Assembly: GCA_030429765.1 (NCBI GenBank)
Contig: JAUIER010000017.1
Location: 1 to 64,000 of the forward strand
Origin: a bacterium
Lineage (GTDB): Bacteria; Omnitrophota; Gorgyraeia; Zapsychrales; Zapsychraceae
Reading direction: 5' to 3'
Length of the DNA stretch: 64,000 nt
The translations under genes and the position numbers were made by a program. Each line of letters starts with the position of its first letter. The first letter of the stretch is position 1. Below are positions 23,383 to 55,659 of the stretch, one piece after another. The notes under the pieces were generated by a model that saw only the letters and a list, made by a program, of their open reading frames with translations, was not told the origin of the DNA and did no database searches.

Positions 23383-23385
23383 TGT

Positions 23386-24441
23386 TTAGCTCCGATTTAA
23401 TTGGTCGACAATCTCCCGCCATAAATCAAGTTCGGGGATGCCGGGTTTGCGTTTACCGAACAACAATGCGATATTCTGATTGTCCTTATCATACAGTTCC
23501 AATGATGTGACGATTCCGTCTTGAGTTGGCTTTTTCACGACCCACGCTCCGGCAATAGCATCTTCCCTTAAATGAAGATTGAATTCCGGATCAAGTACGT
23601 TGTACCAGGTTCCGAATTCTTTCAGATTCTTGACCGGACCCGTATGAATTTGTATACAGCCTGAATTTCCTACAAAAATCATTATCTCGCAATTCTTCTG
23701 TGCGGACAGATTTAATAGATCACGCAAAGAACCCGATTCAACTTTATAGGCATATTCTTCACCGATCAGCCGCAATGCTTGCACACGGCCTACACTGTAT
23801 TTTTTCAGCATGGGAAAGAAATCATGTGTATCCTTTAATGCCGACCAAGCAGAACGAAAAGCTTCGACATCTATCTCACTATCCGGTTTATCAACAGCCG
23901 GCGCCGCTTTTTCCTCAACCGTGATCTGTGCATCCTGATCTGCAGATTGAAAATGCTCAACGTATTCTTCATAGGCCGGAAAGCTGCTGTCCTGTACAAG
24001 ATAAATCTTGTGAATGGCCATACCATCTTTGGCAAAAAACTGCAGGCTATGTCGTAGACCGGATTGAGCTTCTTCTTGCACAGCAAATGCAAATTTCCAA
24101 CCGCTCATAAACAGGCGTAGATCAATGTCCGGATTAACAAATATTCCATGAGGCTTTCCGATTTTACCGTTTTCATATACACCTTTTCGCTCATGAACCG
24201 CATAGTCATTTCGCGTTAGAGCCATCACTTTACCCAATTTCTTCACGGCGGGAAGCATTTCTTGCCAATTCTCCTGTAACCGTGTGACACCATCTCCGGT
24301 CCTGGAAGCCACAATTTCCGCTTCTGTTACTCCAATCTGTTCTGCGGCATCACGCACTCGGAGTTTAGGTTGTGACTTCTTCAGCTGAAGATATCTTTCT
24401 TTAATAAAGGCAGGTGAAATAGTATTATTGTCTGTTTTCAT
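23386..24441 (-). CDS. hmuS: Heme-handling/degrading protein HmuS (HemS/ChuX family)
   Basis: 351 residues from the ATG at 24441, chosen because AGGAGG lies five bases upstream. An in-frame start at 24465 would overlap the receptor gene. Two tandem HemS-type halves are visible. The first contains the likely heme-ligand histidine in NDYAVHERKGVYENGKIG (near 90), then HGIFVNPDIDLRLFMSGW; the second contains KNCEIMIFVGNSGCIQIHTG and FGTWYNVLDPEFNLHLRED. Family members bind heme in the cytoplasm and either deliver or break it down. It lies between the receptor and HmuT genes, the usual place. Confidence 0.92.
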   Translation of the reverse strand: MKTDNNTISPAFIKERYLQLKKSQPKLRVRDAAEQIGVTEAEIVASRTGDGVTRLQENWQEMLPAVKKLGKVMALTRNDYAVHERKGVYENGKIGKPHGIFVNPDIDLRLFMSGWKFAFAVQEEAQSGLRHSLQFFAKDGMAIHKIYLVQDSSFPAYEEYVEHFQSADQDAQITVEEKAAPAVDKPDSEIDVEAFRSAWSALKDTHDFFPMLKKYSVGRVQALRLIGEEYAYKVESGSLRDLLNLSAQKNCEIMIFVGNSGCIQIHTGPVKNLKEFGTWYNVLDPEFNLHLREDAIAGAWVVKKPTQDGIVTSLELYDKDNQNIALLFGKRKPGIPELDLWREIVDQLNRS

Positions 24442-24458
24442 TTTTCCTCCTGAGTTAA

Positions 24459-42300: not shown

Positions 42301-45300
42301 CGTGACCGCCGTGGTTTCATTGATGTCGGCAACCCCGTCCGCCCAGACCACCAGCGGCCGATCCGTCTTCAGAACGGCATTGCTGATCGTCCAGGCTCCG
42401 GCGGCTGTGGTTGTATTTTGATCCAGCAGACGTCCATCGACGGCAATGCGAAGTAGCGTTCCGTCACCCAGATTAGTTGAACCGGATACATCGGCCGTCA
42501 CACCAAAGAACCATTCCGGTGATCCTTCATCACTGTCGGTATTACCGCCATCGATAGAGTCACCCGCGATGATATCCGTGCCGAGCGCCTCGGAGTCCGT
42601 GACCATGACATAATCCACCGTAGGTGTGCCTGTGACGCTGATGTTAAATCGCGTAGACGGAATCGAACTCACAAGATTGATACGGTCATCCGTATCCGCT
42701 CCATCCAGTGTCAAAGATCCCTGTACAATAAAGGTCTCGCCGCCGCCGAATGTCAACGTCGAATCAGCTCCGTCATTGACTTCAACTTTATTGAAGTGAT
42801 AGAACGTCGTTGATCCTGAAATGGATTGATTCACGCCGTCAAATGTCACGGTTCCGGTTCTTGGGATGAATGTTCCGTTGACGGCATCCAGCGTCCAGTT
42901 GCCGGCCACATTCACACCAAAGGCCCCGGCATTGACGTCAAATGTCCCGTCCGTAATCTGCAAGGATCCGTTGACATCCATCGCGCTGGACAATTGCACC
43001 AGCAGGTCGGCTCCATTGTCCGAGTCATCGATGACGACATTGTTAAATGACGTCCCGGATGCATCCACCAAACTGGTTGAGGATGTACCGCTGAAGATTA
43101 CCGTTGAACTGCTGTGACTGAATGTTCCGGCACTAAATGTGAAGTCCGCATCTAATAGCAGATCTCCCGTCGGGGCGGTGTATGTACCGGAAGAAATGGT
43201 CAAATCGCCGCCATGTCTAAAGTCGGTAGATTGCCCGCTAAAGGTTCCGCCGGTGAGAGTTGTTGCCCCATTTACGCTAATGGGCTCTATAACGGTACTT
43301 GTCGCAGGAGACAGGGTTCCGGCGCTAAGATCAAAGATATTCACACCCATATTATCTTGTAGCGTCCATGTTCCGGAACCGGCGATGTCAACATTATTAA
43401 ATGTGTGTGATCCATTGAGAATCAATTTCTCCGTTCCTGTCCCATCAAATTCAACCAAACCACTATTCTCCACAAAAATACCTCCATTATTCATCCAGCT
43501 TCCAGCCAGGTTAATCTGACGGTCGGCCCCCGTGTTCAATGTTCCGTCGTTGAGCGTCAACGTTCCATTGATATCCAGATTGTCCTGCAACGTATAAACC
43601 CCCAATCCGGTTCCAGGCATATTACCTGCGGCGATCCGGGCTATCTCAGAGGCGGACAATGCGCGCAAGTATACCCGAACCTCATCCATCCGTCCGTTGA
43701 GACTTCTTGCACCCCCCTGATCAGCACCAATCCGAATCCCCTGATTTGTCGCCTTAACATGACTGATTCCTACACTTGAGACTGGACTAAAGGAGTCCTC
43801 CACACCATTAACATACAACCGTAATCCATTGGCGCTATTGGCTTCGAATGTGAACGCCAAATGAATCCAACTACTGGTGTTGGTAATTCCCACCGATCCT
43901 TCCATGCGTGCGGATGTTCCATCTGTATCCGTGACCAAGAATGTTACTGTGTCAGCCCGTCCGGAAGTAAACGCCGACTCATCACGCCATATCAGCAATG
44001 ATGCATCTCCGATAAAGGTATCTTTGGAAATCAACACCTGATCACTCCCCAGATCCAGCACCTGAACCCACAACGTTATGGTGAATGACTCAGTCAAATC
44101 AAATTCATTGATATCTCCAAAGTCGATATAGTCTGTCGATCCGTCAAATTCAGCCGATCCCGGATTGTTAAAGGCCGTCAAGGCGTTGACGGTACTTGAC
44201 TGGTTGACGCCACCGCCCCATGTACCGAGATATCCGTTTCCTGTAGCGTCCATCGACGGTGACAATAACTCATCCAATTTCCAATAAGCAAGCATTCCAT
44301 TAGTTCCATTGAGTGTAAAATTATTGAACGATTTGGAGTCGGATGTTATCGTGAGTCCAGTTGTCGTTCCGGCGAAGACAACAGTGGAATTAGTACTTGT
44401 AAATGCTCCACCGCTGGCATCCCATGATCCACCGACATAAACCGAAGAGTTTCCGCCAGCTCCCGCTGAGGCGTCCAGTTCGTCATTGATATCCACATTC
44501 CCATCGACATGTAATTCATAACCATTGACATCAAGCGACCCGTCCTCAACTCTTAAAGTGCCGCCGACATTCATGCGGCCTGAAACCTGGACAATCAAAT
44601 CTGACCCCCCGTCTCCGTCGTCAACCACCACATTCGCGAACTGCCCGATGGTTCCTGTGGTCGCCATCGTTACCACAGATGTACCGGCGTTTGCATTGAA
44701 TGTCACCGTGCTGGTCCCCAGATTTAAGGTGCTACCGAAGCTCGCGTCCCAATCCCCGCCCACAAAGATTTGGGCCTGATCTCCCTCCAAGGTGTTCTGC
44801 CATCCGCCGGCACTTCTAAAGCGGACATTGCCGCCGATCGTTAATGTCGAGTCATTCAAGATCAGGTGACCGATGCGCGATCCCGAGCCGTCGCCGATGT
44901 CCAAATTGCCTGAAAGCGTAATCGAATAATCATTAACTGATGTATCAACCGTGGCCGTTCCACTACTGTTTAAGTCTGCGATATTCATGTTCGTCGCAAC
45001 AACATTTCCATTGAGGACATACGTTTCAGCCGATACACGGAAGAACAGTGGCCCTTGATAATCCGCACCGACAACAGTATCCGTTCCATCCTGATACACA
45101 AATCCGGAGTTACTTAACGTGGCCGCGGGATCGAGAATCATTGGAACTCCGGCATCCCGGTCAAGACGCACCCGCAAACCGTCCAACGTTCCCGGACCAA
45201 TCGTAATGATATCGTGAGTATAAAGATCATTATTGATAATCTCATTGGTTTGTCCCAAAGCCGCAACTTTGATCGCGTACACACCCGATGTCGCCACTTC

Positions 45301-46509
45301 GATATCGCCTGATCCGATCATATCAATCACACTGGTGCCATAGTCAAAGGCCGATCCCACCGGTGATAAAAAGTCGTTGGACAATGTGATCGTTGATCCG
45401 CGGGCTTCAAAACTTCCGCCTTGAATTCTAAGCGTTCCGGTACTGGTGAGCGGATTGTCCTCCACGGCGTTGGTATCAAAGGTCCCGCTCACTAGCTCAA
45501 ATGTTCCGTTGACGACAAAGGCATCCTCCAACTCCCAGGTGGTGCCGCCTCCATTGTCATCGAACTTGACATTATTGAATGATTTGGAATCGGAAATAAT
45601 ATCAAATGTCTGAACCGCACTGGTTCCCGAAAAGACAACCGTGGAGCTCGTGTTAACAAACATTCCGCCGGTCATATCCCATAATCCGCCCGCAAATACT
45701 GTCGTGTTGCCTCCCGGTCCCGGGGCCGCGTCTAATGTTCCGTTAATGTCAATCGTTCCGGTGATCGTGACATTGTATCCGTCTGTGATCAAAGCGTCGC
45801 CCGCATCAATCACCAGCGATGTCGCTAACAGGTCAGAGGTCAATGTTGTGGTGTCCGGCGATGACCCGACCGCTAATCGACCAAGGTTCTGCAATGGAAT
45901 GGTGTTGTCACCGAAGTATAGATCTCCGTCCAGTGTAAGTGTACCTGAAGTCACTGATGCCGTGTAGGCCGCGTCGGATCCGATCGTGAATGTGCCCGAC
46001 ACATTTAGATTACTGCCTGCACCCCGGGCAAATGTCCCGGCTTGTATATTGAACGGTCCATTAATATCCACATTCGCGCCGGAATCTCCCTGGCTGAACG
46101 TACCAAACGATTGCATCCATCCGGCCGATCCAACAGTAAGCGTGACCCCATCCTCTAATGTAATAGTTCCGCTATAAAACTCATCAATCACAATACCCGC
46201 GGCGGATAGATCGACATTGAGGGAGACAGAATTTGTACACGTGTCGGTGAAATGAATAATATCGCCCGCGCCCGGCACGCTGGCTCCGCCTCCTGTATTA
46301 CAGGCGTTTCCACTGGATGCTGACCAATAGATCGGATCGCCGAAATTCTCTCCGGGATCGCCCACCCAATAGCGGTTGGCCTGCGCATCGGCACTGGTCG
46401 CTGTGAAAAGCGACAGCATCAGCATCACGCACACGAATGGCCACTGTCTCATCCGTTGCCAGATCAGTCGGCTGTACTCAATCAAATTGTAGAGCGCCTT
46501 AGTCATCAT
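27316..46509 (-). CDS. Giant secreted repeat protein with seven LamG domains
   Basis: 6,397 residues. An extended signal peptide (hydrophobic core VCVMLMLSLFTATSADA) is followed by a chain dominated by Thr, Ser, Gly, Asn and Asp, mostly short parallel-strand repeats (FNNVxxDD, SSTVxFxGT, SGTLDxxxN) that look like a beta-helix or filamentous adhesin. Seven concanavalin-like LamG domains are embedded in it, together with two glycine-rich units and four EGSPxW modules. It has almost no Cys. The C-terminus (RGAIIIVD) has no sorting signal, outer-membrane barrel or recognisable type IX tail. The ATG at 46509 overlaps the recombinase-like gene by ATGA, with GGAGG 10 bases upstream. Probable role: surface adhesion or polysaccharide binding. 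Confidence 0.85.
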   Translation of the reverse strand: MMTKALYNLIEYSRLIWQRMRQWPFVCVMLMLSLFTATSADAQANRYWVGDPGENFGDPIYWSASSGNACNTGGGASVPGAGDIIHFTDTCTNSVSLNVDLSAAGIVIDEFYSGTITLEDGVTLTVGSAGWMQSFGTFSQGDSGANVDINGPFNIQAGTFARGAGSNLNVSGTFTIGSDAAYTASVTSGTLTLDGDLYFGDNTIPLQNLGRLAVGSSPDTTTLTSDLLATSLVIDAGDALITDGYNVTITGTIDINGTLDAAPGPGGNTTVFAGGLWDMTGGMFVNTSSTVVFSGTSAVQTFDIISDSKSFNNVKFDDNGGGTTWELEDAFVVNGTFELVSGTFDTNAVEDNPLTSTGTLRIQGGSFEARGSTITLSNDFLSPVGSAFDYGTSVIDMIGSGDIEVATSGVYAIKVAALGQTNEIINNDLYTHDIITIGPGTLDGLRVRLDRDAGVPMILDPAATLSNSGFVYQDGTDTVVGADYQGPLFFRVSAETYVLNGNVVATNMNIADLNSSGTATVDTSVNDYSITLSGNLDIGDGSGSRIGHLILNDSTLTIGGNVRFRSAGGWQNTLEGDQAQIFVGGDWDASFGSTLNLGTSTVTFNANAGTSVVTMATTGTIGQFANVVVDDGDGGSDLIVQVSGRMNVGGTLRVEDGSLDVNGYELHVDGNVDINDELDASAGAGGNSSVYVGGSWDASGGAFTSTNSTVVFAGTTTGLTITSDSKSFNNFTLNGTNGMLAYWKLDELLSPSMDATGNGYLGTWGGGVNQSSTVNALTAFNNPGSAEFDGSTDYIDFGDINEFDLTESFTITLWVQVLDLGSDQVLISKDTFIGDASLLIWRDESAFTSGRADTVTFLVTDTDGTSARMEGSVGITNTSSWIHLAFTFEANSANGLRLYVNGVEDSFSPVSSVGISHVKATNQGIRIGADQGGARSLNGRMDEVRVYLRALSASEIARIAAGNMPGTGLGVYTLQDNLDINGTLTLNDGTLNTGADRQINLAGSWMNNGGIFVENSGLVEFDGTGTEKLILNGSHTFNNVDIAGSGTWTLQDNMGVNIFDLSAGTLSPATSTVIEPISVNGATTLTGGTFSGQSTDFRHGGDLTISSGTYTAPTGDLLLDADFTFSAGTFSHSSSTVIFSGTSSTSLVDASGTSFNNVVIDDSDNGADLLVQLSSAMDVNGSLQITDGTFDVNAGAFGVNVAGNWTLDAVNGTFIPRTGTVTFDGVNQSISGSTTFYHFNKVEVNDGADSTLTFGGGETFIVQGSLTLDGADTDDRINLVSSIPSTRFNISVTGTPTVDYVMVTDSEALGTDIIAGDSIDGGNTDSDEGSPEWFFGVTADVSGSTNLGDGTLLRIAVDGRLLDQNTTTAAGAWTISNAVLKTDRPLVVWADGVADINETTAVTLYDGIGNVTGMVLTTGSLSIGSDDLVNVDMTDLQLYDFDDDEDIMFTANSGTLDIQGGNTYTDETLNILTNNTLTLDSGWDLVTEELIINGTLNVTGTNVIQLNDGDWQNNGAFIAASSTVFATSNAAISIGGATTFYGLTVNNTGCSTTTISANMVIRNDLDITTAGTGCGNTVLAAGANSYSLMLWGDATVADGGAGAGGGLEDALIVDMTGTLAQTITNINDGYIGGLTISNTTSTVSLSSDLDVRGTLTIASGAVLDATISNYDLTLSGGSFDWVNNGLFVEQMSTVEFIPHSTGDMVIFGVTTFYNMYVNSTLAGNLVVSDNQVIGNDLTINLTNASSGLNADSTDTHSLSVSGNVVNSSTADIENDLTIVMQGTSAQTIAQTGSGDFGDIQISNTFNDVLMVGDLNINDDITVDAGAAFDLDDSNVTTLGATAFVVSGTLRLDGDQTFVAAQPSFTGGAWIEFTATGGTVMVQDWAYENIKVNGAGATFDMQSNESIGQFLLVGGTFDTTGSNYQLTTNGSFRIQGGNFTANSSVITLNDDLYIANTSGLFSRGTSNVVLNASSNISNANSGNSFHDVTQQDGITTTLIGNMAIGGTGEFNTGNATSTIRTDGNSRTVQFYDTSTITNNGMIWNAQSFSGDLRVDFYGGSRTTGNGNYGNTPIRFFLDDGATFTLDGSIRLGDFSIGALAAADSNTFDTAGYQFASRDFDLGTSGQTDRYSTFNAQSSTVLISRDVTFRTSDSSGDNIFNAQTSYVNVGDDWTNNGVFNAGTSTVNFDGNAIMFDGSTTFYNWIVVENSNDFLDPQLTITAGDTIVIQGTLVMMGLDVNDRVTLRSSVPGSRWNIAISSGQGNVDFIDVSDSEVIGSNDIFGTNSLDTSNNDSGEGTPHWIFALSGTIDISGSSDLPPGTTIRVAATGSFQNLPATTTAGDGSWTISGVPGLATDEIIHVWAEGVAEALEATSVTLYDGTGNITGMVLNSNVLIIGSDDNSVVSVTDLAEFDNDDDEDLIFVSNIGTLVMDPGDVYSDEEIRILANNTLRMTNNQNTFARDITINGVFDINGTAGVRITDGDWVNNGTFDPATSSVLFTSTSGVGSTISGDNTFYNLTTLGSGTTTVSTGTIIVDDVLYVTSGTLDMNDNSFSINGSLNLLGGQILTGTAPVTIGDAGGDFVIVSDGTLRIESDATDTDITINAGAWTNSGGAVEYTGSSSTSVFSAIQPYYDLVVNSAGNTFTANTDITVNNDLKIQQGTLDLDGYELTVDGSVDLDGTLDASTGTDGDVTIDVGAAWDSTGGTFTNTNSKVDFTGTTATQTYTLTSGSVIFNDIEFVNPSATTTWVLEDSLDVNGNVRLAGGTLDVNVSENNSINFVGNWTVTSGQFEPRAGTVVFDRTSGSAAMTTNGQALYNLQLNDGGGPGDGRLQLADTLRLTGSLSLDNGTLDLVGQDMHVGGHIDINDTLDAAPDTGGNSTIYGGGDWDMTGGVFSGSSSTVIMTGTTAGLTITADSKTFNNFMINDGLVGYWKFEETSSPAIDSSGYTSHAVWTNGAGNLSNTPSLSKYENLWSMNFDGDNDYLELGTINSDHPLMLFNTEFTISAWFYQHGGGDDFQRIVDKSDNGNAVNGYALYVRPDSQQAAIMVNDNSYSTTSTENYALNTWNHIAAVVTNSDSAIYINGVEITTSSYTRGAHALPPNVNTTMRIGSWNHSTQREYDGELDEIRIYNRALTAAEIARMANGYMPGVGGGTYTLQDALNVDGSLTINAGELDSGANQNINVAGSWINNGGIFTPNLNLTTLDGTGSGLEILSGTQTFYNLHLANAGTWTLLDDLPVSSELQVRGNGSLGYSTDTNIEPISIIGDTLLPGGGPTGTFIGNANQFRHDGDLHISAGTYTAPTDLLEITGSFIHSGGTFNNSSSTVIFGGTTGGLIDSSGGAVFNDLVISDGLVAYWKMDEIVTPTFDHSGYGNHCTWVNSPTTSNQTPDVDYVNPASLEFDQADTDHLDCGSDESLNLTEAITVTAWVNPGTPLNAETIIVTRANSTGSTTDWRFMAQGYTAGGGEWGFRVSPLVTESNANTALSSGTWYHLAVTYDRQTVRLYLNGVPDGTSSKTAALGATQPIKIGRGIGGAQEHYDGLIDEVRIYNRVLSATEITRLAAGTLPQASTNEYTLQTDLDVDDDIYIHTGELDTGSDRAINVGGSWINNGGRFVSNNGTVLFDGTSSGNSIVTRSQTFYQAEISGVGEWQFEDNVYVSQSFVVSTGSLTYSSADNLEPITLNGTLNVNGGLFNGTSTRFRNVGQLNISAGTFNAPTDVLEIDGTFTHSGGTFNTNSSTVMFVGTTTNAINMPSGAAFNDVMINDGLIGYWSMDDLADPSQDYSGYGNHAAWEDGPANATNVAPLNFVNPRSILLDGTNDVLNTGMSENLQEGDFSVSLWIRPDTLSQIGRLVADDDNGLGWALSYGDGGDQSVRFFVRGMDVSTLTASSVISSSARWYHVAGVFDNANNERLIYVNGIQVAADLTDTGTPTVDPGNIIIGGESSLSPENREFDGRLDDVRIYRRVLTPLEIQRLAKGDMPRTAIGQTTLQTAVDIDGDLVIAAGEFNVGSDYAVNLAGSWINYGGSFEPGNGTVTFDGTTTGHIILSGSETFTNADLAGTGEWSLNDDVATTSSFDVSSGTLTYSNDDDVPTITSYGTLLINGGTFIGTSARFRSDGILSIESGVFTAPSDVLEISGTFSHSGGTFNTNSSTVMFVGDSNNTIDLTAGTAFNDLAINDGLVGYWRMDETSSPVQDSSGYANNGTWSGTTTSFASTASTIQFSNPGAVSFDGSGDYIFVPENNLYNSENLTVSYWLRIPSGHGNVNFDRIFELGGYLKVGGISMEFNGTTQLTAYVWNTPTWTDIGSYTFVQDEWFNVILTSQTSPSQQHRIYINGVEQGSGTTQPRFVSPESLTIGARNNNNSQFQGEFIIDDFRIYNRVLSPSEITRISSGAAPALSQSSTTLLTNLDVDGNIIISSGTLDVGSNRLINVAGSWLNQGGVFNEGTSTVIFDAQSGTVNIQELQTFYHVQFNDAPGGTAIFNQYSSLDIDGNLSLTDGTLDASTDNHSIQLAGNWINNDTFTPRTGTVEFDGDNQTVTGATTFYSIAKYDETDNGVDSIIAFEAGTTFTINGTITFQGLDDSDRVNIVSTNPGTRSTFDVAIGNQRVRWMDIQDSQTVTSDLLAVRSIENTNTDAPEASPHWIISLGEIYEWTGSSDATTWEDQGNWSVRDSSDGDDGYPDDNLEEAFFLTGSNTIDTPSGTLTIGGLQTSGAFTGTVVLSGTLVLDDAAGLNGDVNILTGTLTHLDNTTTETNKLVMQIDGDLTVAAGAQINVDGLGYDAGFGPGTPGAGINEGGSYGGQGGDHNLAGIVGSVYGSITAPVNIGSGGGTDASGGGAAIITVGGTTTIDGSISAQGDAVSVGAGSGGTINLTTGYLQGTGTLSVDGGSLGIVTRGAGGGGRIAVDLTGAGADFMSFTGTMRAYGGDAEGRDSGAAGTIYWESPSVLSGQGTLIIDNNNNDMIVTGTILTLMPTSVNLNDFAAVVVRNHGNLGIDADDTINFGTVNLVTDDKRTAFVSILDDTGVTFPAPFTLTGYTLNADGVSSVTGDWTITNGILSHSRNTQNHLYDLNLTITGALNVASTGEINVDGMGYYPSYGPGAPSTTTNGGAYGGIGGDHNEDDDQDAQTYGSITAPIDLGSGSGSAASPYAGSGGGAAILTVTGITTIDGTFSAQGAVGGAGGSGSGGSIFLTTDSLAGTGTIIADGGGGGGGVSTRGNGGGGRVALVLTGGGSDFNTFETGGTITAYGGTGLFNFDGAAGTIYKQTSGQGSGNGILIIDNNGNTNPYTAGGVVTTLDDQDANMTVVGSLVIQNEGYFVIGADDMLTVGGTNDTFTVTSGASFVNFGTFVLAGDAFTTMGSQNYSNTGNTVILIGEDDDSGSPILSGGTFYNLILNNAGNQFTAYNNVDVNGTFRLQAGEFNQNERDLNVAGNFILDAGTSFIKSNIGTLTLDGDLYYADYTDPLQDVGRLVIGQSPDTTTLLTDMSATSLKVMATDFLITDGYNIYLTGTMDINGDLNAAAGAGGNTDIHVGGPWDATGGNFTATDTTVMFVGTTSALTITSSGESFNNLIINSSIGLVGYWKLDESASPALDYSGYGHHGTWFNDVSSYAGTSTVIRYNNPGAAEFDGTNDYIEIPDSDVLDQEDDTMTVMAWINPHDFGEANQGRIIDHGGGDGFDGGWAFRVDDSGPMDNALVFIVENDAGNRDFVQSNNEIITLNEWQHVAATINGFNVEFFVNGVSEGTAVLTRDIGKTTEPVRIGIRASDTNRDYDGYIDEVRIYGRVLADAEIQDIANGTMPLTGLGTYTLQDNLDVNGTLSLNDGTLDTGSNRQINVARSWLNHGGQFMPNSGVVIFDGGVTGNQILSGSETFRSVSIVGFNGGWELQDDTAATGGYTIALGDLSYATSTVIEPVVMNSNMFINAPFGTFTGTSTRFRHAGDVNISDGTYTAPTDVVEIDGSFTHTGGTFTNSSSTVMFTGTGAGSTINTSGGGTFQNVIVNDGLIAYWPLDEVATPSLDYSGYDNHLDWVNAPTSTNNTTSTIKFRNPSSLQFDGGNDVLAVTDYNINKRLDIEAGEEFTMSVWVRSSDTTQDQKVIDNRDGNVGGYQLRFTTGGGFFLRIDEGPGSTDTVATPTVMDGTWKHIAAGRSSAEHFLYVNGGTPDTSADATLADLSNSIDFQLGGESAGAGAWNGEIDDVRIYNRALSAAEIQRLANGDQPSTGLGTYTLASNLDVDGTLRLNAGTLDTDAAANYQVNVGGDWENFGGVFNARSGTVVFDGNDHWIPASETFYNFSKNLTAGPSRTLTFGRKSTVTVNNTLDIGGFDASNELLLRSSSVGARFNVDVTGAAQTVRFVNVQDSEALSNDIKTLNSTDAGNTDTKEGSPRWVFGPLRGAIIIVD
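30650..32310 (-). repeat. Two glycine-rich units in the giant gene
   Basis: Copy A (about 31610-32310) and copy B (about 30650-31375) share the order: DGxGYxxxxGPGxP, AYGGxGGDHN, GSITAP, SGGGAAIxTV, TTIDGxxSAQG, GAGSGG, RGxGGGGRxAxxLTG, AYGG, GAAGTIY, LIIDNNxN. They look like a duplicated domain of about 230 residues. Similar GGGGRIAV stretches occur in other large bacterial surface proteins. Confidence 0.75.
39050..42635 (-). repeat. Paired modules of about 220 residues with EGSPxW signature
   Basis: Copies at about 41965-42635 and 39050-39730 share DSEx(n)EGxPxWxF, GDGTxxRxA, TAGxGxWTIS, VWAxGVAxxxxxTxVTLYDGxGNxTGMVL and DGDWxNNG in the same order. Two shorter copies of the first part lie near 32545-32700 and at the C-terminus (27316-27470), so the module ends the protein. 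Confidence 0.7.
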
Positions 46510-47594
46510 GATTGATCAGCCTCCGAGGATTCATTTCGAAGACCGAAATTTAATTGTCGGATCGCGTCCGAACCTTTTAATTGATTCAATTGGCCGGCGA
46601 TGGTCTCGACATGCTGGTCCGATCCGCCCATCAATTGCTTTACAGTGACAAGATCAACGCCTTGACGGATCAGTTGGGCGGCAAATGTATTGCGCAAGAC
46701 ATGCACGTGCGAGACATCATCCAGCCCGGCCATCCGGGCCACTTTGATAATCTCGTTACGCAGATAATTTTTAGACAGCCTGCGTCCTTTGCGATCGGCA
46801 AAGACCAGCGACCGATCAGAGGTATCGTGTTGTATGTCGGATAAGATCTGAATGACCTGCGGATGCAGCGGCAGCGTTCGGACATGAATGGCTCCATGCG
46901 TCTGTCCGCCCCGCACATGAAGTTGTCCCGCGCTCAGTTCGATATCGTCCCAGGTCAGCTGTTCAAATTCACGCTTGCGCAATCCGGTAAACAAGAATGT
47001 CTGGAGCAAACGTTGCTGATAGGCGTCCGCGGCATCCAGCAAACGCTCGATCTCATCCGCTGTGAGATAACGCGTGTTTAAAGATTCATCCATGTCCAGA
47101 CGCGACACATCTTCGGCCGGATTGTTAATCAGCCAGCCGGACTTCTGCGCCATCCGGAATATCTTTTTGAGTAGAAGAATCTCCGAATTAACCGTCCGGG
47201 GCTGAACCTGCTGCTTCAAACGGCTGGATTGATACTGTTGAATGATTTGCGGTGTAATTTGATTTAAGGACGAGATGGGTTGCGATTGTCCGGACAGGAA
47301 CATCGCGAAGTTACTCAAGATGGCCCGATAACGATCCTGCGTGTTCGGGGACTTGGTTGAACCTTCGGCGTGGAAATACCGGTCGCACAAACCGGCAAAA
47401 TCTATATGTGAACCGGGCGCGGAACCTTCCCGCGCCTGAATTTGTTGCGTGATCTCGTGCAACAGCTGCTGGGCCTCGGCATGGGACGTACCGGCACTTC
47501 GACGCACGCGCTTACCGTCAATGCGGTAATCGACATAGTACCTGTTTCCCCTTTTACGGATTGAAGCCAAATGGACCCTTGAATATGCGCCCAT
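46506..47594 (-). CDS. Tyrosine-recombinase-like protein lacking the catalytic tyrosine
   Basis: 362 residues with the XerC/D architecture: a SAM-like N-terminal core-binding domain (about 65-165) and a catalytic domain (about 175-345). The first arginine is present in FTGLRKREFEQL (near 203), and the HxxR motif in HVHVLRNTFAAQL (near 295). The usual LGH motif is replaced by MGGSDQ, and the following segment HVETIAGQL has no tyrosine where the nucleophile belongs; none occurs after it. The hairpin lysine is also not evident. It is therefore probably not a strand-transferase. It may bind DNA or regulate. The stop overlaps the giant gene by ATGA. The ATG at 47594 has no clear ribosome-binding site; a TTG near 47570 preceded by AAGGG is an alternative. 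Confidence 0.85.
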   Translation of the reverse strand: MGAYSRVHLASIRKRGNRYYVDYRIDGKRVRRSAGTSHAEAQQLLHEITQQIQAREGSAPGSHIDFAGLCDRYFHAEGSTKSPNTQDRYRAILSNFAMFLSGQSQPISSLNQITPQIIQQYQSSRLKQQVQPRTVNSEILLLKKIFRMAQKSGWLINNPAEDVSRLDMDESLNTRYLTADEIERLLDAADAYQQRLLQTFLFTGLRKREFEQLTWDDIELSAGQLHVRGGQTHGAIHVRTLPLHPQVIQILSDIQHDTSDRSLVFADRKGRRLSKNYLRNEIIKVARMAGLDDVSHVHVLRNTFAAQLIRQGVDLVTVKQLMGGSDQHVETIAGQLNQLKGSDAIRQLNFGLRNESSEADQS

Positions 47595-47817: not shown

Positions 47818-50800
47818 CTATCCAATCGCGCCGCCCAATTGGTCTAGCCGAAGGGCCATTGGATCCAGTTGAGGAACCCGACCGACCTCGGTGGGGCCTT
47901 CCTGATCGATCAACCCCAGGAGCATCGGCAGGCTCGGGGCCGGTGAGATGTTAATGATGATCGGGACAAATCCATTGATCTGCTCAAGATTGACCGCGGG
48001 AGCGGTTGACGGCAGATTCAGCTCAATGAAATCCCCTTCCACATTTAATTCGAGGGCGGATGGATTTAGGTCAATCCCCCCTTTGTTCTCTGACTCAAGA
48101 GTGTCTTCCGGCTTGGTCAGCATGGCAAAATCTAAATCTTCGGTGATGGACTCCAGTGCAAACAGTCCCAATAGTATTCCGAGATTGTTCACCTCTTGAC
48201 GCATCTCGCGCTCAATAGACTGTCCAATCTCCAATGCCCTAGCAGCCATCTCTTGTCGTAGAGCGTCATCCTGCAAAATTTTGGCAAGCTTGGTGTCCGA
48301 GTACGTCTGCACGGCTTGACCGGCAACAAAAGTATCCAATACCTTTTTGTTTAAATTCCATCCGCCAGGCATATTCATAAAGGCAATGCCCTGCATAGCC
48401 AACTCCATGATATTTCGATCATGTCCGATAATGCCGACGCCGTTATTGCGCGCTAAAGCATACAAAGTCCCTAATTCACCGACAGAGGTCACCGTTAATA
48501 TATCCGCATCAGATAAGTCTTCATATGGCCGACCCGCATCCTTATCGGCCTGCGTTCGTTGTCGGACAACATACTGATCTTTGTACACCGACAGACGAGA
48601 CTCGTCGGATGGCTGACGGAAGCCCATAATCAAGAGCGGCTTTTTCGCGTTATCCTCTATACCGTCGATCAACTCTTTGAAACCTCGCATGATCGGCCCG
48701 GTTTCCAGAGTACCGGGTGACCCCACGACGATGACCGGTCGATCACCAATATTCATCTCAGTCCTTAAAGAGGATACGACTTGATCGGAAACGTAGGCCA
48801 CTCGCCCTTTCACCGACTCCAGATTCAACCATCCCTTCAAAGGCTTTTGAGAAACATCCGAACCTTCATCCTTAAATTCAATCCGCACAAACGCATCTTC
48901 ATCATATGTCTTCGTGCTCGACATGGACATGGTCTCCACACCCGGGAATGTATTTTCAATTAACGTCTTAACTCCGGCATCGGCATCCTTGGACCGAACA
49001 TAACCAATAACAATAGACTCAGGACTTAACTCAAGAAAATCCATCACACTCTTGATCGCATTGATCCGCGCTTGTCCGTTCGCCACCATCAACAGTCGCT
49101 TATCGATAAGACCCAAAGCGGTTTCCAATGTTTTCCCCGTTTTGATAAATCTCGGTGACTGGACGTGATGTGTGGACAGCATATGCTCGATCAACAGCCT
49201 GACACCTCGATTCACCCCGTACTTAATCATCATCCGCGCCGCAGCAACGCGCAATGCGTGTACTCGATTCTTATCCGTTACGATGTCTAGCAACTGGCCT
49301 TCAAGTGATCTGACGACGTCACTACTATTCACCGCTCTAATCGCCGCAAGCGCCAATTCCACTTTCTGGACCGGTGTCCGAATATCCTTGAGAAATGCCC
49401 GCACCTTACCCACAATCAATTGAACAATCTCCTGATCCAAGTGCTCGGCATGCTCAGCAAGCACAAGTAAACTTTGCTCGACAATAAATGAATCGTAGTC
49501 ATCTTCGTTTTCGATAACATTCACCAGCAAGGCATATTCCTTGGCCTTTGCCAGTCTGTGCAACATTTCGATATATTCTGGTTGAAACATCGCAAACATA
49601 CTGGATCGGTCCGAGATATTGTAGTTCCCTTTAAGTCGATCGAGCGATCGTTTATCCATAATGAGTCGATGCTCGTCAAGGCTCGATATCATTGCCTCAT
49701 CCGCGTCAATCTGATCAATAGAATGGATCAATTCATAATAAATCCCTCTTTCCCGGTCGACGATAATCCCATCTTCATCCTGTGTGACGGCGACACGTTT
49801 GGGGATGAATTCAAACAAGCGGTTTTTGCCGGAACCGAAGATCGATTGTCCAAGATAATGCCGGACCTTATTCGCGCTGACCGCACGCTCGATTTGCGAT
49901 TTAACATCTGTGTTAATAAAGCGGGTGGCTGAACGTTCAAGCGCCTGATACATACGCTGCCAAAAGTCCTGATCCTCGCCTTTATCGTCAGCCAGGGTAT
50001 TCAGCGAAATAGCAGGTAAAACATAGTTACCCAGATCCGGCGAAATAAAAATATGGCGAATGCTAAACCTATCCGCGTCACGCTCAAAGACAATGAACAA
50101 TCCGCCTCCGCCCTTTTCACCAAGACTGCCCTGTCCGGAGGGATCATACTCCCGGTTAAATTTGGCCTTCAAATGCGCATGCAGCACAAAAACGTCATCT
50201 GATATCTTCATCAAGGCGTGATGAAACTGCGACGAGAATCCCTGCGGCAAGTCCGGATCCAGCGCGAAATCAAATGTTTCCGGATCCAGAATCTTGAGAT
50301 CAGCTTTGATCTCGTCCTCCATCGGATCGCGATTTTCGTATAGTTCGATATGCTCCTTATGGCGATGACGGTATTCCTCATCGATCGCAAGCAATTTATT
50401 CTTCGCCCTTTCACGCTTTGCCAGGACATCCTCAAGCGAAGGTGTCAACATCGCCGGATCACCTAGTCGAAAGATATCTTGATCCAAAGTACCTCCATGA
50501 TCGTTCTCAATTGACTTCAACGCATCACTCACCGCCGCATATTCAGTAGAGAATAGACCCAATGCCAGGTCCAAGTGAGGTATATTTCTCTCAATTATTT
50601 CTTGAAGGGATCGCGGATCTTGACGAAGTCCTTCAAATATCCATTCAGGTATCGCATACGAATACTGCCCGCGGTCCGAAGAATAAAAAATTCGCAACAA
50701 TCCCATACGATTTAAAACGCCCCATTTATCTTTTTCCCGAGATACTTCTTCTGTTGTTGTGAGCTGTGAAGTCCACCGGCGAGGTTGAAGATTCGGATTA

Positions 50801-53800
50801 TGGCGATTCTCCCGAATATATTCCAGTTCTGCGCGTAAAATTGCGTACCAGGAACTTCTCAGCGTTGTCATAACAATCCGCTGACCGTTAAGCCGGAAAA
50901 GATCGGCGATATCTTCCTCAAGAACAGCGGTCATCGCGGCATCGGAGGACGCATTTGTTTCCACCCGTCCATCGCGGACAAACTTGATTCGCTCATTAAT
51001 CCTGTCTATCTCCAGCTCCAACGCCCGCATCTGATTGTACCTGATCAATCCGGTGACACTTCCGTCGGGATTTTTCAACCGGGCAACACGTTTTCGCAGT
51101 TTATCTTTTTCCCGCAGCAATGCATCGATATCATCACCGCCTTTCATCGCCGAGTCGACATCATTTTGCCGGACCCAATCTTCATCATCAAATGCCAGCT
51201 TCATATTTGTCTGCGAGCGCCACCAGTTTCTAAAAAACTCCGACCGGCTGCTGTCTTTCGTCGCGACAAGCACTACCTTGTCCACCGCCTGATCATCTGT
51301 GTAGAATTCATAGTCAGCCAGCCCTTGAAAGCGGACCACCGCAACATTGATAATACCTTTGTCCGTCCTCACATTCGGCCGTCCATAAACCCGGCCCAAT
51401 CGACTGGACTCTATGCTCCGGACCACATCGCCTTCCTGCAGCTGATAGCCTTCTTTCAATGTTTGTTCCACCGGAAATCCCACACGTTCATTCATCACGC
51501 GACCCATATCTTTGAGCTTCGTTGAAAATACACGGACACTCCCAATCCTGGATAAATATCGGTAGCTGTCAACCCTGACCCTTTTACTTTCAAGGTCCAT
51601 ATACCAATCCAGATCCAATGTTTTGAGGTAGGAATTCAACTCCGTCATGCGCCGGACATCTTCAACTCTGCGTCCGGATTGCATATCAAAAACCTGGGCT
51701 GGTTTACTATCGTCGGTCAAGACATCCACGACATAAACACCCAAATCACTCAACCACAGGATATCAACCGGCGCCTTCTGATTGCGCCGCTCCAGCCGCA
51801 GCAATTTTTTATTAAGCATGATATTGCCTTCGCGGTCCAGCACCTTACCGGTGATGATACCGTTAAAGTCGTCGAGTTGATTGGCGAGCCGCGACAGCGT
51901 GGAAAATTGCGCCCGGAAAGTTGTAAGATCGCGGTAGACGGTAAATTGATGCGTCTGCAGCAAATCGTCGGCATTTCCCCGCAGGGCCAGCGCCACAATC
52001 GCACCATGCTGATTGACTACGGGCTTACCATACACATTCAACCGCTGCCGCTCAAATTGATCAACCAGGATCATCGTTCCGTCCTCAAATGCCATCGTGG
52101 CAAATCCTTCACCCTTGGGGAGTTTTTGTTGACGGTCAGGCCCAAAGGACTGAAAGTTTTCCTGACGTCCGCGAACATCGACATTTTCGATAGCAAAGAC
52201 CTGATTGATATCATCAAACGCAAACTGCACCGCCGACTGGATCACCTGACCATTTTGATCGCGGGCCGCTTTGATGATGTAATCCGACCCGTCGGCTGTC
52301 CGGACAACCACCGGCCAACCGTCTTCGTATTTGACATCCACCGTCTGACCGATTTCAATAGCCGGGGACATCACCTGGATCACCGAATCGCCTGCCTGCA
52401 CATACTTGGCCTGATTATTCGCCCCTGCTCCACCGACAATCGCCGCCTCGATCCAGCCGCTGATTTTCCGTCGGGCCGATGAATCTCCTAGATGTCGATT
52501 TTCAACGCCAAGCGGAACGCCCTTGGCCTGTGTTCCGCCGACCAGTAGACCAATCGGTTCACCGGCATCATCACGAATCCACTTCCAGCTCATCACCCGC
52601 TTGGGATCATTGCGGTAATAAATCGTCTCCAATTCATTGTCCTCATCAAACACAAATGTGTGACGATGCGTGCGCACAAAATACACCGGCATAAAACGCC
52701 CGTTGATGCTGATCTCATCTTGGTAATCCTTCCTCACCGACGGTGTAAACCGCTGCATTTTCTGAGTAACAATCCCCTTGCTCCGGATCTTGTACTCCTT
52801 TAAGACACGCTGAACAACGGCCGGTGTCACACCGTGCTCCGCCGCGATCTCGGTTTGTGATTTTGGAATGGTTTGATTGCGCAGCTTCTTCATCTTGGCA
52901 CGAAATTCCCGGGTGGCCTCGGTCTCCACGAATCTTCCGGTTTGGGCTGAGCGGATTTCCGAAACCATCGCCGCGTCTGTGGCCTCGTAAACAGATTCGT
53001 AGAAAAATAATCCCGGCACCTTGGCAATATCTTTGCGCTGGCTTCGCAGCAGTCGCAACGGAACCTCAACCGGCCGGTCGGATTGTTTACGGAGCTTGTA
53101 CATGTAGGCCGGATCCTCAAACGCCGCGTCGTTAACCGGTTCAGACACCGCCTTACCGGCGAACGCGAGCAACAAGAGTTGTTCAATCACGCGCAAACTC
53201 GCGTCCTGTTTTTCTCCGTTGGTCAGCCCCGGCAACTCCTGCTCCTGCGGCAGGTAAATATCTTCCAGATAAAAAGCGGTAACACCTCCCTGACTCAGAT
53301 AATCATTATAGAGATCGATCATGATCCCGATCTTGTCCCGGAAATACATCTGCGTTGATGTTTCCAAAATGATGTAATCATATCTTTGACCGCCCAGCAC
53401 ACGTGACAGGTCGTCGTCCGCGTTCAAGTCCATCAACACCGGACGAATACGTCCCAGGGCCTCCGCCATCTCTGCGTCCCCCGCTATCGATCTAAACTTC
53501 TCCCGGATCATATCCGGACGATACAGCCCCGCCTCTTTATTGACGGCCGTTATGCTTAGGTGCGGATATTGCAGCGCCATCTCCGCCGCCGTAAACCCGC
53601 GTCCGGCCCCGATCAACAAGACGGTCTTCGGCGCGCCGTTGTCGGTGTCAAAATTGTCGGAAATCTGATAGCGCATATCGATCATCTGATAATCACGGGT
53701 GACTCGGAACTCGGCCCCATACGGATTATCCGCCGTTGGAAAGTCAAGTTCGGCGGTGGTCATGGCCGCATCGGATGCGGCCTCTGCGGCCAGCACCCCC

Positions 53801-55659
53801 TGCTTGACCTCGTCGAGGATTTGCGCCGGAGATTTATCCTCGGGATAAACCGGCGGCGCAAACGAAACGATCATGCGCGATGGAAAATCTCCGCTCTCCC
53901 GAAACGGCAAAATAGGAATGCCGAACTGTTTGGCGATGCGTACAAATCCCGGCCGCCATCGGCCTACATCACTTAAGAAATCATCCGCGTCGATTTGGCT
54001 CAAATCTTCCCACGAATCCGATCCCGGATAAATCCCGAGAATCGCCTGCCGCTCCTGCAACGTTTGCAGCATTTTGCGCAAACCGGTGATGCCGTATTTT
54101 TTCTGCATCGTCAAAATGATGCCGTGATTCTCCATCCAGTTGGTGATCCAGAACAATAATTTTTGGGATAACGGCCCCAGACTGTTTTGCTGCGACCGTA
54201 CAACAAATGTCGGCAGCTGACCGCTGGTCAGATATATCTCGGTGACCAGCAGCAATCCGTCCAGTCCATTCCCCAGATGATTTCCCGCCATAATAAAACT
54301 GCCCGTTGACGGCATATGCTCCAGTCCGCGCAGCGTCACACTCTTTCCGAGGAACATCCGGTAGAACAACAACCACGGCTGAAGGATGCGCGGAAGACGT
54401 TGCCGGACACGATCGGTTCCCCTCTTGTCGATTTCAGCGTCGAGGAGACGCCCGGCGACACCCGCCGCATCGCCCAACCGGGTACGGACCCGCACATTCG
54501 TCCCGTCGAGATTGACGGCATCCGTAAATGCCGAAGGATCCACCGTCTTCATCGCCAAATCCAGCGTGGTGTGATCCACCCCGCCCGAAAAATACTTACG
54601 CGGTGTTACCTGTTTGGTGACAGGGTCTTCGTCTTCACGGATATAATCGTACACCCCTTTCTTGAAGGAACGCACGTACTGCTCATAAATTTTCTGATTG
54701 ATGGCGGGGTCATTGATCTCAACCCCGTCGGTCTTGGATTGATTAACGTAGTACTGGCCCAATAAACTGGCCTTGAGATTCTTTTTGTACCATGTGGCCA
54801 GGATCATGGAGTGATAGATTTGCCGCAGATTGGCGAAGGTGCGGCCGTGATTAATCTCCCGTTCGATCTCCGGGATCAATACGTCGCGGACCACCTCGGC
54901 CGTCACACCGGTCACAATGTCTAGATCCTGGACCTTTACATCACCCAACCCGTGCCGGGTGCTGTTACGGTTAATCGACAGGGCCAGATAATCTTCCTCG
55001 AGCATCACCTTGAGATGCGTGTTCACCACGTAAACAGATTGATCACGGACAACCACATCGGCACGCTCGGGCACGATCCAGATCTTGTTGAACGTATTCA
55101 TCGGAATATCGGTGGTGCCGTATTCCTGCTGCGCGCGTTGATGCACACGCCGCCAAAACTCGCCGCCCAATTCATCTTCGGGATACATCAGTGACGCGGA
55201 TAATTGTTTAAGAAGATAGTCCTGGGCCAGCAGGTCACGGCCCATTTGCGTGTGACCAAAATCATCAGGGATGATCCGGTTTTTCTCGTACGGCGAAAGG
55301 TTGACCCACATCTGATCCTCAGGTACGGTCAGCGCGGCCAGAAAATATTTGATGAGCTTGGTGGATTCGGCGCTGAGATCCTCACCCGATAAATGATCAT
55401 CTCCGGTGTCCACGATAAAATCGAATTCCAGCGGCTGATCAGGAAGGATGGTCATCCCCCGGATAATCGCCGGATTATAGGCGGATGTGGCCGGCACCAT
55501 GGTCCCGGGCTGCGGCAGGTTCAGGATCGTCGCCGGCCGGATCTGGGCAAACGCCGCCCTAGGCGGCATCAGCAGGCTGACCACCAATGTGGTCACCACC
55601 AGCCAGACAACCGATCGATAAACGAGTCCAAATTTTCTATCTATATGTCTCATATACAC
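47818..55659 (-). CDS. Giant multidomain (polyprotein-like) envelope protein, Omnitrophota type
   Basis: 2,613 residues. A signal sequence (about 1-38) and an N-terminal domain (about 40-400, MWVNLSPYEKNRIIPDDFG) are followed by a degenerate PlsC-like acyltransferase (about 435-620; NHLGNGLD has five instead of four residues between His and Asp). Next are a SAM-methyltransferase-like domain (about 675-830, VLLIGAGRGFTAAEMAL), an HTH-like stretch (about 925-960), beta-rich and coiled-coil parts, another HTH-like region after 1570, and a Kdo-transferase-like GT-B half (about 2285-2480, TSVGELGTLYALA). The tail holds GGIDLNPSALEL and GFVPIIINISP. DAAM linkers occur near 626, 895 and 1570. The start is either GTG at 55659 or ATG two codons later. 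A multi-enzyme scaffold or processed polyprotein is inference. Confidence 0.75.
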   Translation of the reverse strand: MYMRHIDRKFGLVYRSVVWLVVTTLVVSLLMPPRAAFAQIRPATILNLPQPGTMVPATSAYNPAIIRGMTILPDQPLEFDFIVDTGDDHLSGEDLSAESTKLIKYFLAALTVPEDQMWVNLSPYEKNRIIPDDFGHTQMGRDLLAQDYLLKQLSASLMYPEDELGGEFWRRVHQRAQQEYGTTDIPMNTFNKIWIVPERADVVVRDQSVYVVNTHLKVMLEEDYLALSINRNSTRHGLGDVKVQDLDIVTGVTAEVVRDVLIPEIEREINHGRTFANLRQIYHSMILATWYKKNLKASLLGQYYVNQSKTDGVEINDPAINQKIYEQYVRSFKKGVYDYIREDEDPVTKQVTPRKYFSGGVDHTTLDLAMKTVDPSAFTDAVNLDGTNVRVRTRLGDAAGVAGRLLDAEIDKRGTDRVRQRLPRILQPWLLFYRMFLGKSVTLRGLEHMPSTGSFIMAGNHLGNGLDGLLLVTEIYLTSGQLPTFVVRSQQNSLGPLSQKLLFWITNWMENHGIILTMQKKYGITGLRKMLQTLQERQAILGIYPGSDSWEDLSQIDADDFLSDVGRWRPGFVRIAKQFGIPILPFRESGDFPSRMIVSFAPPVYPEDKSPAQILDEVKQGVLAAEAASDAAMTTAELDFPTADNPYGAEFRVTRDYQMIDMRYQISDNFDTDNGAPKTVLLIGAGRGFTAAEMALQYPHLSITAVNKEAGLYRPDMIREKFRSIAGDAEMAEALGRIRPVLMDLNADDDLSRVLGGQRYDYIILETSTQMYFRDKIGIMIDLYNDYLSQGGVTAFYLEDIYLPQEQELPGLTNGEKQDASLRVIEQLLLLAFAGKAVSEPVNDAAFEDPAYMYKLRKQSDRPVEVPLRLLRSQRKDIAKVPGLFFYESVYEATDAAMVSEIRSAQTGRFVETEATREFRAKMKKLRNQTIPKSQTEIAAEHGVTPAVVQRVLKEYKIRSKGIVTQKMQRFTPSVRKDYQDEISINGRFMPVYFVRTHRHTFVFDEDNELETIYYRNDPKRVMSWKWIRDDAGEPIGLLVGGTQAKGVPLGVENRHLGDSSARRKISGWIEAAIVGGAGANNQAKYVQAGDSVIQVMSPAIEIGQTVDVKYEDGWPVVVRTADGSDYIIKAARDQNGQVIQSAVQFAFDDINQVFAIENVDVRGRQENFQSFGPDRQQKLPKGEGFATMAFEDGTMILVDQFERQRLNVYGKPVVNQHGAIVALALRGNADDLLQTHQFTVYRDLTTFRAQFSTLSRLANQLDDFNGIITGKVLDREGNIMLNKKLLRLERRNQKAPVDILWLSDLGVYVVDVLTDDSKPAQVFDMQSGRRVEDVRRMTELNSYLKTLDLDWYMDLESKRVRVDSYRYLSRIGSVRVFSTKLKDMGRVMNERVGFPVEQTLKEGYQLQEGDVVRSIESSRLGRVYGRPNVRTDKGIINVAVVRFQGLADYEFYTDDQAVDKVVLVATKDSSRSEFFRNWWRSQTNMKLAFDDEDWVRQNDVDSAMKGGDDIDALLREKDKLRKRVARLKNPDGSVTGLIRYNQMRALELEIDRINERIKFVRDGRVETNASSDAAMTAVLEEDIADLFRLNGQRIVMTTLRSSWYAILRAELEYIRENRHNPNLQPRRWTSQLTTTEEVSREKDKWGVLNRMGLLRIFYSSDRGQYSYAIPEWIFEGLRQDPRSLQEIIERNIPHLDLALGLFSTEYAAVSDALKSIENDHGGTLDQDIFRLGDPAMLTPSLEDVLAKRERAKNKLLAIDEEYRHRHKEHIELYENRDPMEDEIKADLKILDPETFDFALDPDLPQGFSSQFHHALMKISDDVFVLHAHLKAKFNREYDPSGQGSLGEKGGGGLFIVFERDADRFSIRHIFISPDLGNYVLPAISLNTLADDKGEDQDFWQRMYQALERSATRFINTDVKSQIERAVSANKVRHYLGQSIFGSGKNRLFEFIPKRVAVTQDEDGIIVDRERGIYYELIHSIDQIDADEAMISSLDEHRLIMDKRSLDRLKGNYNISDRSSMFAMFQPEYIEMLHRLAKAKEYALLVNVIENEDDYDSFIVEQSLLVLAEHAEHLDQEIVQLIVGKVRAFLKDIRTPVQKVELALAAIRAVNSSDVVRSLEGQLLDIVTDKNRVHALRVAAARMMIKYGVNRGVRLLIEHMLSTHHVQSPRFIKTGKTLETALGLIDKRLLMVANGQARINAIKSVMDFLELSPESIVIGYVRSKDADAGVKTLIENTFPGVETMSMSSTKTYDEDAFVRIEFKDEGSDVSQKPLKGWLNLESVKGRVAYVSDQVVSSLRTEMNIGDRPVIVVGSPGTLETGPIMRGFKELIDGIEDNAKKPLLIMGFRQPSDESRLSVYKDQYVVRQRTQADKDAGRPYEDLSDADILTVTSVGELGTLYALARNNGVGIIGHDRNIMELAMQGIAFMNMPGGWNLNKKVLDTFVAGQAVQTYSDTKLAKILQDDALRQEMAARALEIGQSIEREMRQEVNNLGILLGLFALESITEDLDFAMLTKPEDTLESENKGGIDLNPSALELNVEGDFIELNLPSTAPAVNLEQINGFVPIIINISPAPSLPMLLGLIDQEGPTEVGRVPQLDPMALRLDQLGGAIG

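What the first reader, a model, noticed from the sequence alone, without database searches (positions are those of the whole stretch)
47818..55659. 2,613-residue protein that looks like a secreted polyprotein of several degenerate enzymes
An acyltransferase-like domain with an altered NHxxxxD spacing, a SAM-binding-like domain, HTH-like segments and a Kdo-transferase-like GT-B end are joined in one chain behind a signal peptide. Cytosolic-type enzymes in an exported protein make little sense unless the signal is a membrane anchor or the enzymes are relics used for binding. DAAM linkers near residues 626 and 895 fall next to domain boundaries; the third, near 1570, precedes an HTH-like region.
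Basis: partly seen in the sequence, partly recalled or inferred. Interest (0 to 1): 0.7.

Follow-up and report, generated by a model that had tools for sequence, protein, structure and literature searches.

The report
Exported chains of metabolic enzymes
This bacterium appears to make about 25 very long exported proteins, each a string of enzyme modules between the same two end pieces, and several carry apparently working sugar-metabolism enzymes that should not make sense outside the cell, which suggests it runs metabolism somewhere outside its own cytoplasm, perhaps in another cell.

Summary
The 2,613-aa ORF is real (minus strand) and belongs to an unnamed Omnitrophota family of about 25 paralogues in this genome: signal peptide, conserved ~330-aa N-domain, variable enzyme/effector-like cargo, ~70-aa GGIDLN C-domain. 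No Pfam, NCBIfam or PDB entry matches the end domains. Paralogues and relatives carry isocitrate lyase, malate synthase, GAPDH, PGK, TIM, aldolase, PGI, glycogen synthase, branching enzyme and glucanotransferase. The family is almost cysteine-free (11 in 54,393 mature residues; ~1.1% elsewhere), yet catalytic cysteines of isocitrate lyase and GAPDH are kept. So the chains are very probably exported and the best-matched cargo active, not relic. P0001's own cargo (PlsC-like, SAM-like, half a GT-B) is species-specific and its activity undecided. Cleavage at linkers and delivery into a host or prey cell are inferred, not shown. 'Secreted polyprotein' holds; 'degenerate relics' is not supported for the family.

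The parts
47818..55659 (-). Whole ORF, 2,613 aa (P0001); probable start ATG at 55653. No cysteine anywhere in the chain.
55546..55653 (-). Signal peptide, MRHIDRKFGLVYRSVVWLVVTTLVVSLLMPPRAAFA|Q (residues 3-38)
   Evidence: max 15-residue Kyte-Doolittle 2.61, AxA|Q; same layout in 22 of 24 paralogues
54565..55545 (-). Conserved N-domain (residues 39 to ~365)
   Evidence: 24-sequence alignment A1, 50-65% identity; 137 of 384 Omnitrophota genomes; no Pfam, NCBIfam or PDB match
54550..54561 (-). DxAM linker 1 (DLAM, residue 367), right after the N-domain
53902..54339 (-). PlsC-like acyltransferase module (residues 441-586), NH-x5-D
   Evidence: PF01553 29.7 bits, cut-off 23
53761..53772 (-). DxAM linker 2 (SDAAMTT, residue 630)
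53020..53682 (-). SAM-binding / Rossmann-like module (VLLIGAGRGF..., approx. residues 660-880)
   Evidence: weak NF006138 E 0.012; 35% identical piece in relative G115
52966..52977 (-). DxAM linker 3 (DAAM, residue 895)
52765..52872 (-). HTH-like segment (residues 930-965), unproven
   Evidence: PF13545 E 0.16, below cut-off
51550..52659 (-). Module shared with one paralogue (residues 1001-1370), unknown function
   Evidence: 31% identity to C1:139196-140287
51145..51156 (-). DxAM site 4 (DSAM, residue 1502)
50932..50943 (-). DxAM linker 5 (SSDAAMTA, residue 1573)
50449..50460 (-). DxAM linker 6 (DPAMLT, residue 1734)
49690..49701 (-). DxAM linker 7 (DEAMISS, residue 1987)
48235..48777 (-). 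GT-B donor-half module, WaaA-like (residues 2295-2475)
   Evidence: NF004386 positions 220-405 of 433, E 2e-6; related to paralogue C5b
48121..48132 (-). DxAM linker 8 (DFAMLT, residue 2510), 17 residues before the C-domain
47875..48081 (-). C-domain GGIDLNPSALEL...GFVPIIINISPAPSLPMLLG (residues 2527-2595)
   Evidence: 25 places in the own genome; alignment A2

Best explanation
P0001 is one member of a large family of exported multi-enzyme polyproteins in Omnitrophota. Seen in the sequence: a Sec-type signal peptide, a family-specific N-domain, a string of unrelated cargo modules joined by short D-x-A-M-L-S-D linkers, and a family-specific GGIDLN C-domain; the mature chains are purged of cysteine, and several paralogues carry central-carbon enzymes with intact active sites. 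Inferred: after export the chain is cut (or at least held flexibly) at the lineage-specific linkers and releases or displays folded enzymes, while the N- and C-domains serve targeting and sorting. Inferred: the enzymes act where cytosol-type metabolites are available, most simply in a host or prey cell or a vacuole-like space, where the set seen across the family (glyoxylate shunt, GAPDH, PGK, TIM, aldolase, PGI, UDP-glucose pyrophosphorylase, glycogen synthase, branching enzyme, glucanotransferase) would turn acetyl-CoA carbon towards glycogen. P0001's own cargo would be a species-specific lipid- or glycan-modifying set. Rough odds: exported modular family with working cargo 0.85; cleavage at linkers 0.5; action in another cell 0.3-0.35.
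For: N- and C-domains recur in ~25 loci of this genome with different middles. All 13 N-domain chains read from 12 loci of four other families of the order also end in the C-domain; N-domain in 137/384 Omnitrophota genomes. Signal peptides in 22/24. Cysteine 11/54,393 in mature chains vs ~1.1% elsewhere; survivors are the ICL CKKCGH, CxxC/CxxxC pairs and one G-x-C-x-G elbow; in three further genomes the ICL chain keeps the KKCGH Cys, in two of them as its only Cys (one in 4,340 aa, one in 2,143 aa), and a GAPDH double module keeps SNASCTTN twice. DxAM 105 vs 8 expected, conserved at protein not DNA level, 0/104 inside domains, 9-31 aa before GGID in 21 of 26; in G309 DAAM sits at the malate synthase/isocitrate lyase joint, and in the window's genome a TIM/aldolase cassette sits at that joint. 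SSP[LIVM] replaces it in other families. Stand-alone, cysteine-bearing TIM and GlgA coexist with exported copies. ICL in the order occurs only inside 2,143-4,340-aa chains. Four relatives have a full-length PGI only inside giant ORFs.
Against: No proteomics, so neither export nor cleavage is observed. No protease was identified. The N-domain model is of medium quality (pLDDT 63.5, pTM 0.71) and matches no solved fold, so its targeting role is a guess. One relative (G248) has a cysteine-containing GlgA with the C-domain but no signal peptide or N-domain, so the C-domain alone is not an export tag. No host is known, and the translocase search was uninformative. P0001's own modules show no proof of activity; one TIM copy is degenerate.
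Confidence: 0.72

Rival explanations
1. The chains stay uncut in the periplasm, on the cell surface or in an internal membrane compartment of the Omnitrophota cell itself, and the linkers are only flexible hinges; the enzymes serve the producer's own extracytoplasmic metabolism (for example surface glycogen or use of lysed prey).
For: Signal peptide and cysteine loss fit any extracytoplasmic site; no host-delivery machinery was tied to the family; some PVC-related bacteria have internal compartments (own knowledge).
Against: Substrates and cofactors such as acetyl-CoA, ATP and NAD are not expected there; lineage-specific linker swaps (DxAM vs SSP[LIVM]) look more like a co-evolving recognition site than a plain hinge.
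Confidence: 0.3
2. Effector polyproteins comparable in logic to MARTX toxins: conserved ends translocate a changeable set of modules into another cell.
For: Cargo turns over fast: P0001's cargo has no full orthologue in 31 other genomes of its family, including its genus, while end domains stay 50-65% identical; effector-like, mostly weak, cargo matches (kinase-like, Fic, GNAT, AceK, HD_4) in paralogues; Omnitrophota are reported to show host-dependent traits (PMC10066038).
Against: No RTX repeats or internal cysteine-protease domain found; much cargo is ordinary metabolism; no known translocation fold found.
Confidence: 0.25
3. Decayed enzyme relics kept as binding or coat modules.
For: P0001's acyltransferase has NH-x5-D and lacks the PEG glutamate, its GT-B is a half; the second TIM copy in C12a has lost its catalytic residues.
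Against: Intact active sites in the strong cargo matches examined and selective retention of catalytic cysteines.
Confidence: 0.12
4. DxAM marks a DNA recombination site for shuffling modules, not a protein signal.
For: Modules appear to be inserted at linkers.
Against: Codons at the motif vary about as in the rest of the genes and the 30-nt flanks are no more alike than random (0.274 vs 0.265).
Confidence: 0.04

Closest known systems
Chlamydia trachomatis exported glycogen enzymes (GlgA, GlgB and others; PMC3722199, PMC4829429)
   Same: A bacterium exports ordinary glycogen-metabolism enzymes so that they work outside its own cytoplasm.
   Different: Chlamydia sends single enzymes without signal peptides by type III secretion (PMC4829429); here many enzymes are fused in one Sec-type precursor with conserved end domains and linkers. 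The destination here is unknown.
MARTX toxins (own knowledge)
   Same: Giant exported chain with conserved ends and a changeable set of internal modules.
   Different: No RTX repeats or internal cysteine protease found; cargo includes housekeeping metabolism; about 25 paralogues per genome.
Giant ORFs of Omnitrophota (PMC10066038)
   Same: Same phylum, very long exported-looking proteins of poorly understood role.
   Different: Those reported are longer than 20 kb and mostly adhesin-like or domain-poor; this family is defined by its own N- and C-domains and carries recognisable enzymes. That description was not found in the papers read.
Polymorphic toxin / Rhs systems (own knowledge)
   Same: Constant trafficking region with variable cargo.
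   Different: Several cargo modules per chain, both ends constant, metabolic cargo; immunity genes were not looked for.

Membership tests
N-domain/GGIDLN-domain exported polyprotein family (defined here) | Signal peptide with AxA cleavage site | tested here: met
   (P0001 and 21 of 23 others)
N-domain/GGIDLN-domain exported polyprotein family (defined here) | Conserved N-domain | tested here: met
N-domain/GGIDLN-domain exported polyprotein family (defined here) | GGIDLN C-domain | tested here: met
N-domain/GGIDLN-domain exported polyprotein family (defined here) | Lineage-specific linkers outside domains and before the C-domain | tested here: met
N-domain/GGIDLN-domain exported polyprotein family (defined here) | Mature chain almost free of cysteine | tested here: met
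   0 of 2,613 in P0001
N-domain/GGIDLN-domain exported polyprotein family (defined here) | Cleavage at the linkers | not testable with these tools
   needs proteomics
PlsC acyltransferase (PF01553) | Profile match over cut-off | tested here: met
   29.7 vs 23 bits
PlsC acyltransferase (PF01553) | NHx4D and FPEG motifs | tested here: not met
   NHLGNGLD is NHx5D; YPGSDS in place of FPEG. x5 variants exist in related families from memory, not tested
WaaA Kdo transferase | Full-length match over curated cut-off | tested here: not met
   26.7 vs 524 bits, C-terminal half only
Type IX secretion CTD proteins | Known CTD profile | tested here: not met
   no such match in the NCBIfam scan of P0001
MARTX toxins | RTX repeats and cysteine-protease domain | tested here: not met
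   no such Pfam match in P0001 or paralogues

The most novel reading that the evidence does not exclude
Omnitrophota export a near-complete gluconeogenic and glycogen-building pathway as self-punctuated polyproteins, cut at a lineage-specific DxAM (or SSP) site, and run it inside another organism's cell or a vacuole-like space.
Probability: 0.3. Interest if true: 0.95.

Novelty: categorically new. Interest (0 to 1): 0.86.

Why it matters
Exported central-carbon metabolism in fused, punctuated precursors would be a new way for a bacterium to work outside its own cytoplasm, and it gives a direct, testable handle on the open question of how Omnitrophota live with or on other cells. The two end domains and the linker are simple sequence marks by which many more such proteins can be found. 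If the linkers are cut, bacteria use true polyproteins on a large scale, which is rare outside viruses.

Tried and rejected
The apparent 24,583-aa paralogue (C19) is an artefact: 24,000 of its residues are a run of N. PDB searches with P0001 as a whole and with its acyltransferase and GT-B regions gave nothing useful. Fold search of the N-domain gave no match with E below 0.19. The C-domain model was poor (pTM 0.18), so it was not searched. The ATP/ADP translocase search found nothing but also rang in no control genome, so it says nothing. Relatives of the integrase next to P0001 are not systematically beside paralogues. The DNA-recombination-site reading of DxAM was tested and disfavoured. 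Literature searches found no description of this family, but the library lacks preprints and most subscription papers.

Full report
What is there. The window holds one open reading frame at 47818-55659 on the minus strand, 2,613 aa, with a GTG start and an ATG two codons later. It begins with a typical signal peptide ending AFA|Q. Pfam supports the acyltransferase (PF01553, residues 441-586, above cut-off). NCBIfam gives a WaaA-like match to the C-terminal half only (residues 2295-2475). The SAM-like and HTH-like segments are weak. DAAM occurs at residues 630, 895 and 1573, with five further D-x-A-M sites.

It is one of a family. A search of the window's own genome (3.31 Mb) found about 25 places with the same first ~365 residues (39-65% identity) and about 25 with the same last ~70 residues, with different middles. 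Several lie in tandem (contigs C27, C12, C23). The cargo of the paralogues shares almost nothing between members. The organism is an Omnitrophota bacterium, judged from its relatives. In the phylum, 137 of 384 genomes hold the N-domain: nearly all of the window's own order, with up to 78 first-look candidates per genome, and a thinner scatter elsewhere in the class. In 12 loci read from four other families of the order, all 13 N-domain chains also ended in the C-domain. No Pfam, NCBIfam or PDB sequence matches the N-domain, and its model (pLDDT 63.5, pTM 0.71) matches no solved fold.

The linker. D-x-A-M occurs 105 times in 56,183 residues of family chains against 8.0 +- 3.0 in shuffles, and 0 times in 14,223 residues of other window proteins; the consensus runs on as L-S-D. 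None of 104 sites falls inside a recognised domain, where 15.8 would be expected (p = 4e-8), and in 21 of 26 members a site lies 9-31 residues before GGID. In G309 one intact 2,143-aa chain reads N-domain, malate synthase, DAAM, isocitrate lyase, C-domain; in the window's genome the corresponding chain (C32 + C12a, each cut by a contig end, so their joining is inferred from this alignment) has a TIM/aldolase cassette at that same linker. The codons are free and the flanking DNA is not alike, so selection acts on the protein. In other families of the class the linker is SSP[LIVM] (28 against 1.0 expected) and DxAM is absent. A linker that is constant within a genome and swapped between lineages suggests a recognition site, for example of a protease; no protease was identified.

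The cargo. In the window's genome: glycogen branching enzyme, two glycogen synthases and 4-alpha-glucanotransferase in one chain; malate synthase, TIM, two class I aldolases and isocitrate lyase in another; AceK, a PEP-utilising (PPDK-type) enzyme, glutamate dehydrogenase and others. In relatives: PGK and UDP-glucose pyrophosphorylase, PGI and phosphoglucomutase, two GAPDH and an acyl-CoA dehydrogenase. Active-site residues read intact for branching enzyme, both glycogen synthases, glucanotransferase, aldolase and isocitrate lyase, and PGI aligns with a solved PGI over nearly its whole length. The assignment of the catalytic residues rests on established knowledge of these families. One of two TIM copies is degenerate.

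Export and activity from cysteine. The mature chains of the 28 own ORFs hold 11 cysteines in 54,393 residues; other ORFs in related loci have about 1.1%. P0001 has none. The 11 are the isocitrate lyase CKKCGH, CxxC or CxxxC pairs in three chains and one G-x-C-x-G elbow. In three other genomes the isocitrate lyase chain also keeps the KKCGH cysteine, in two of them as its only cysteine, and the GAPDH chain keeps both SNASCTTN cysteines. Stand-alone TIM and GlgA in the same genome, presumably cytosolic, have 5/258 and 6/469. This is what one expects of exported enzymes that still need their catalytic cysteine. It argues against both a cytosolic multi-enzyme and pure relics. Depletion is weaker in more distant families of the class (0.26%).

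Own copies and exported copies. TIM and GlgA exist both as normal stand-alone genes and inside exported chains. Isocitrate lyase above cut-off occurs in 4 of 54 genomes of the order and only inside 2,143-4,340-aa chains. Almost every genome of the family has a short stand-alone PGI, while four have a full-length PGI only inside 1,901-2,844-aa ORFs, so at least some cargo looks acquired separately from the resident enzyme.

What P0001 does. Its cargo has no full orthologue in 31 other genomes of the family, its own genus included, apart from a piece of the SAM-like domain in one. It is a fast-changing member. Its acyltransferase and GT-B modules would suit lipid or glycan modification, but NH-x5-D spacing, the missing PEG glutamate and the half-length GT-B leave activity undecided.

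How it compares. The nearest known behaviour is the export of glycogen enzymes by Chlamydia trachomatis through type III secretion (PMC3722199, PMC4829429); the nearest known architecture, from memory, is that of MARTX toxins. Giant ORFs are known in Omnitrophota and have been discussed as adhesins or predation factors (PMC10066038); this family was not described in the papers found.

Limits. Everything here is sequence. Export rests on signal peptides and cysteine loss, processing on the linker statistics, and destination on metabolic logic. The C-domain also occurs once on a cysteine-bearing GlgA without signal peptide in G248, which remains unexplained.

Noticed in passing
27316-46509 (-): 6,397-aa protein with a signal peptide and repeated LamG-like segments, next to an integrase; resembles the laminin_G_3 giant ORFs reported for Omnitrophota.
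   Followed up: partly
46506-47594 (-): Tyrosine recombinase between the two giant genes; six distant relatives in the genome, not systematically beside family members.
   Followed up: partly
L090-L094 (G000:C19:7938-81686): An apparent 24,583-aa ORF with a family C-domain is 24,000 residues of N-run; the real gene there cannot be judged.
   Followed up: yes
L070 residues 630-915 and 1430-1700 of the ORF at 2-9898: TIM appears split or circularly permuted around inserted aldolases; one copy keeps His/Glu, the displaced beta-1 (VVGMNHKTK) follows it, the second copy has lost its catalytic residues.
   Followed up: partly
L118:4848-7601 (G248): Glycogen synthase with the GGID C-domain but no signal peptide or N-domain and with normal cysteine content.
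   Followed up: no
L070, L047 cargo: Exported isocitrate lyase scores best against the longer (~540-560 aa) ICL type, and class I aldolase and PF01704 UDP-glucose pyrophosphorylase are types common in eukaryotes; origin of the cargo not tested by trees.
   Followed up: no
L087 ORF residue 636: G-L-C-H-G elbow keeps the only mature-chain cysteine of this paralogue, as in PHA synthase-like hydrolases.
   Followed up: no
20698-26462 (-): TonB-dependent receptor with an ABC importer (BtuCDF-like) cluster.
   Followed up: no
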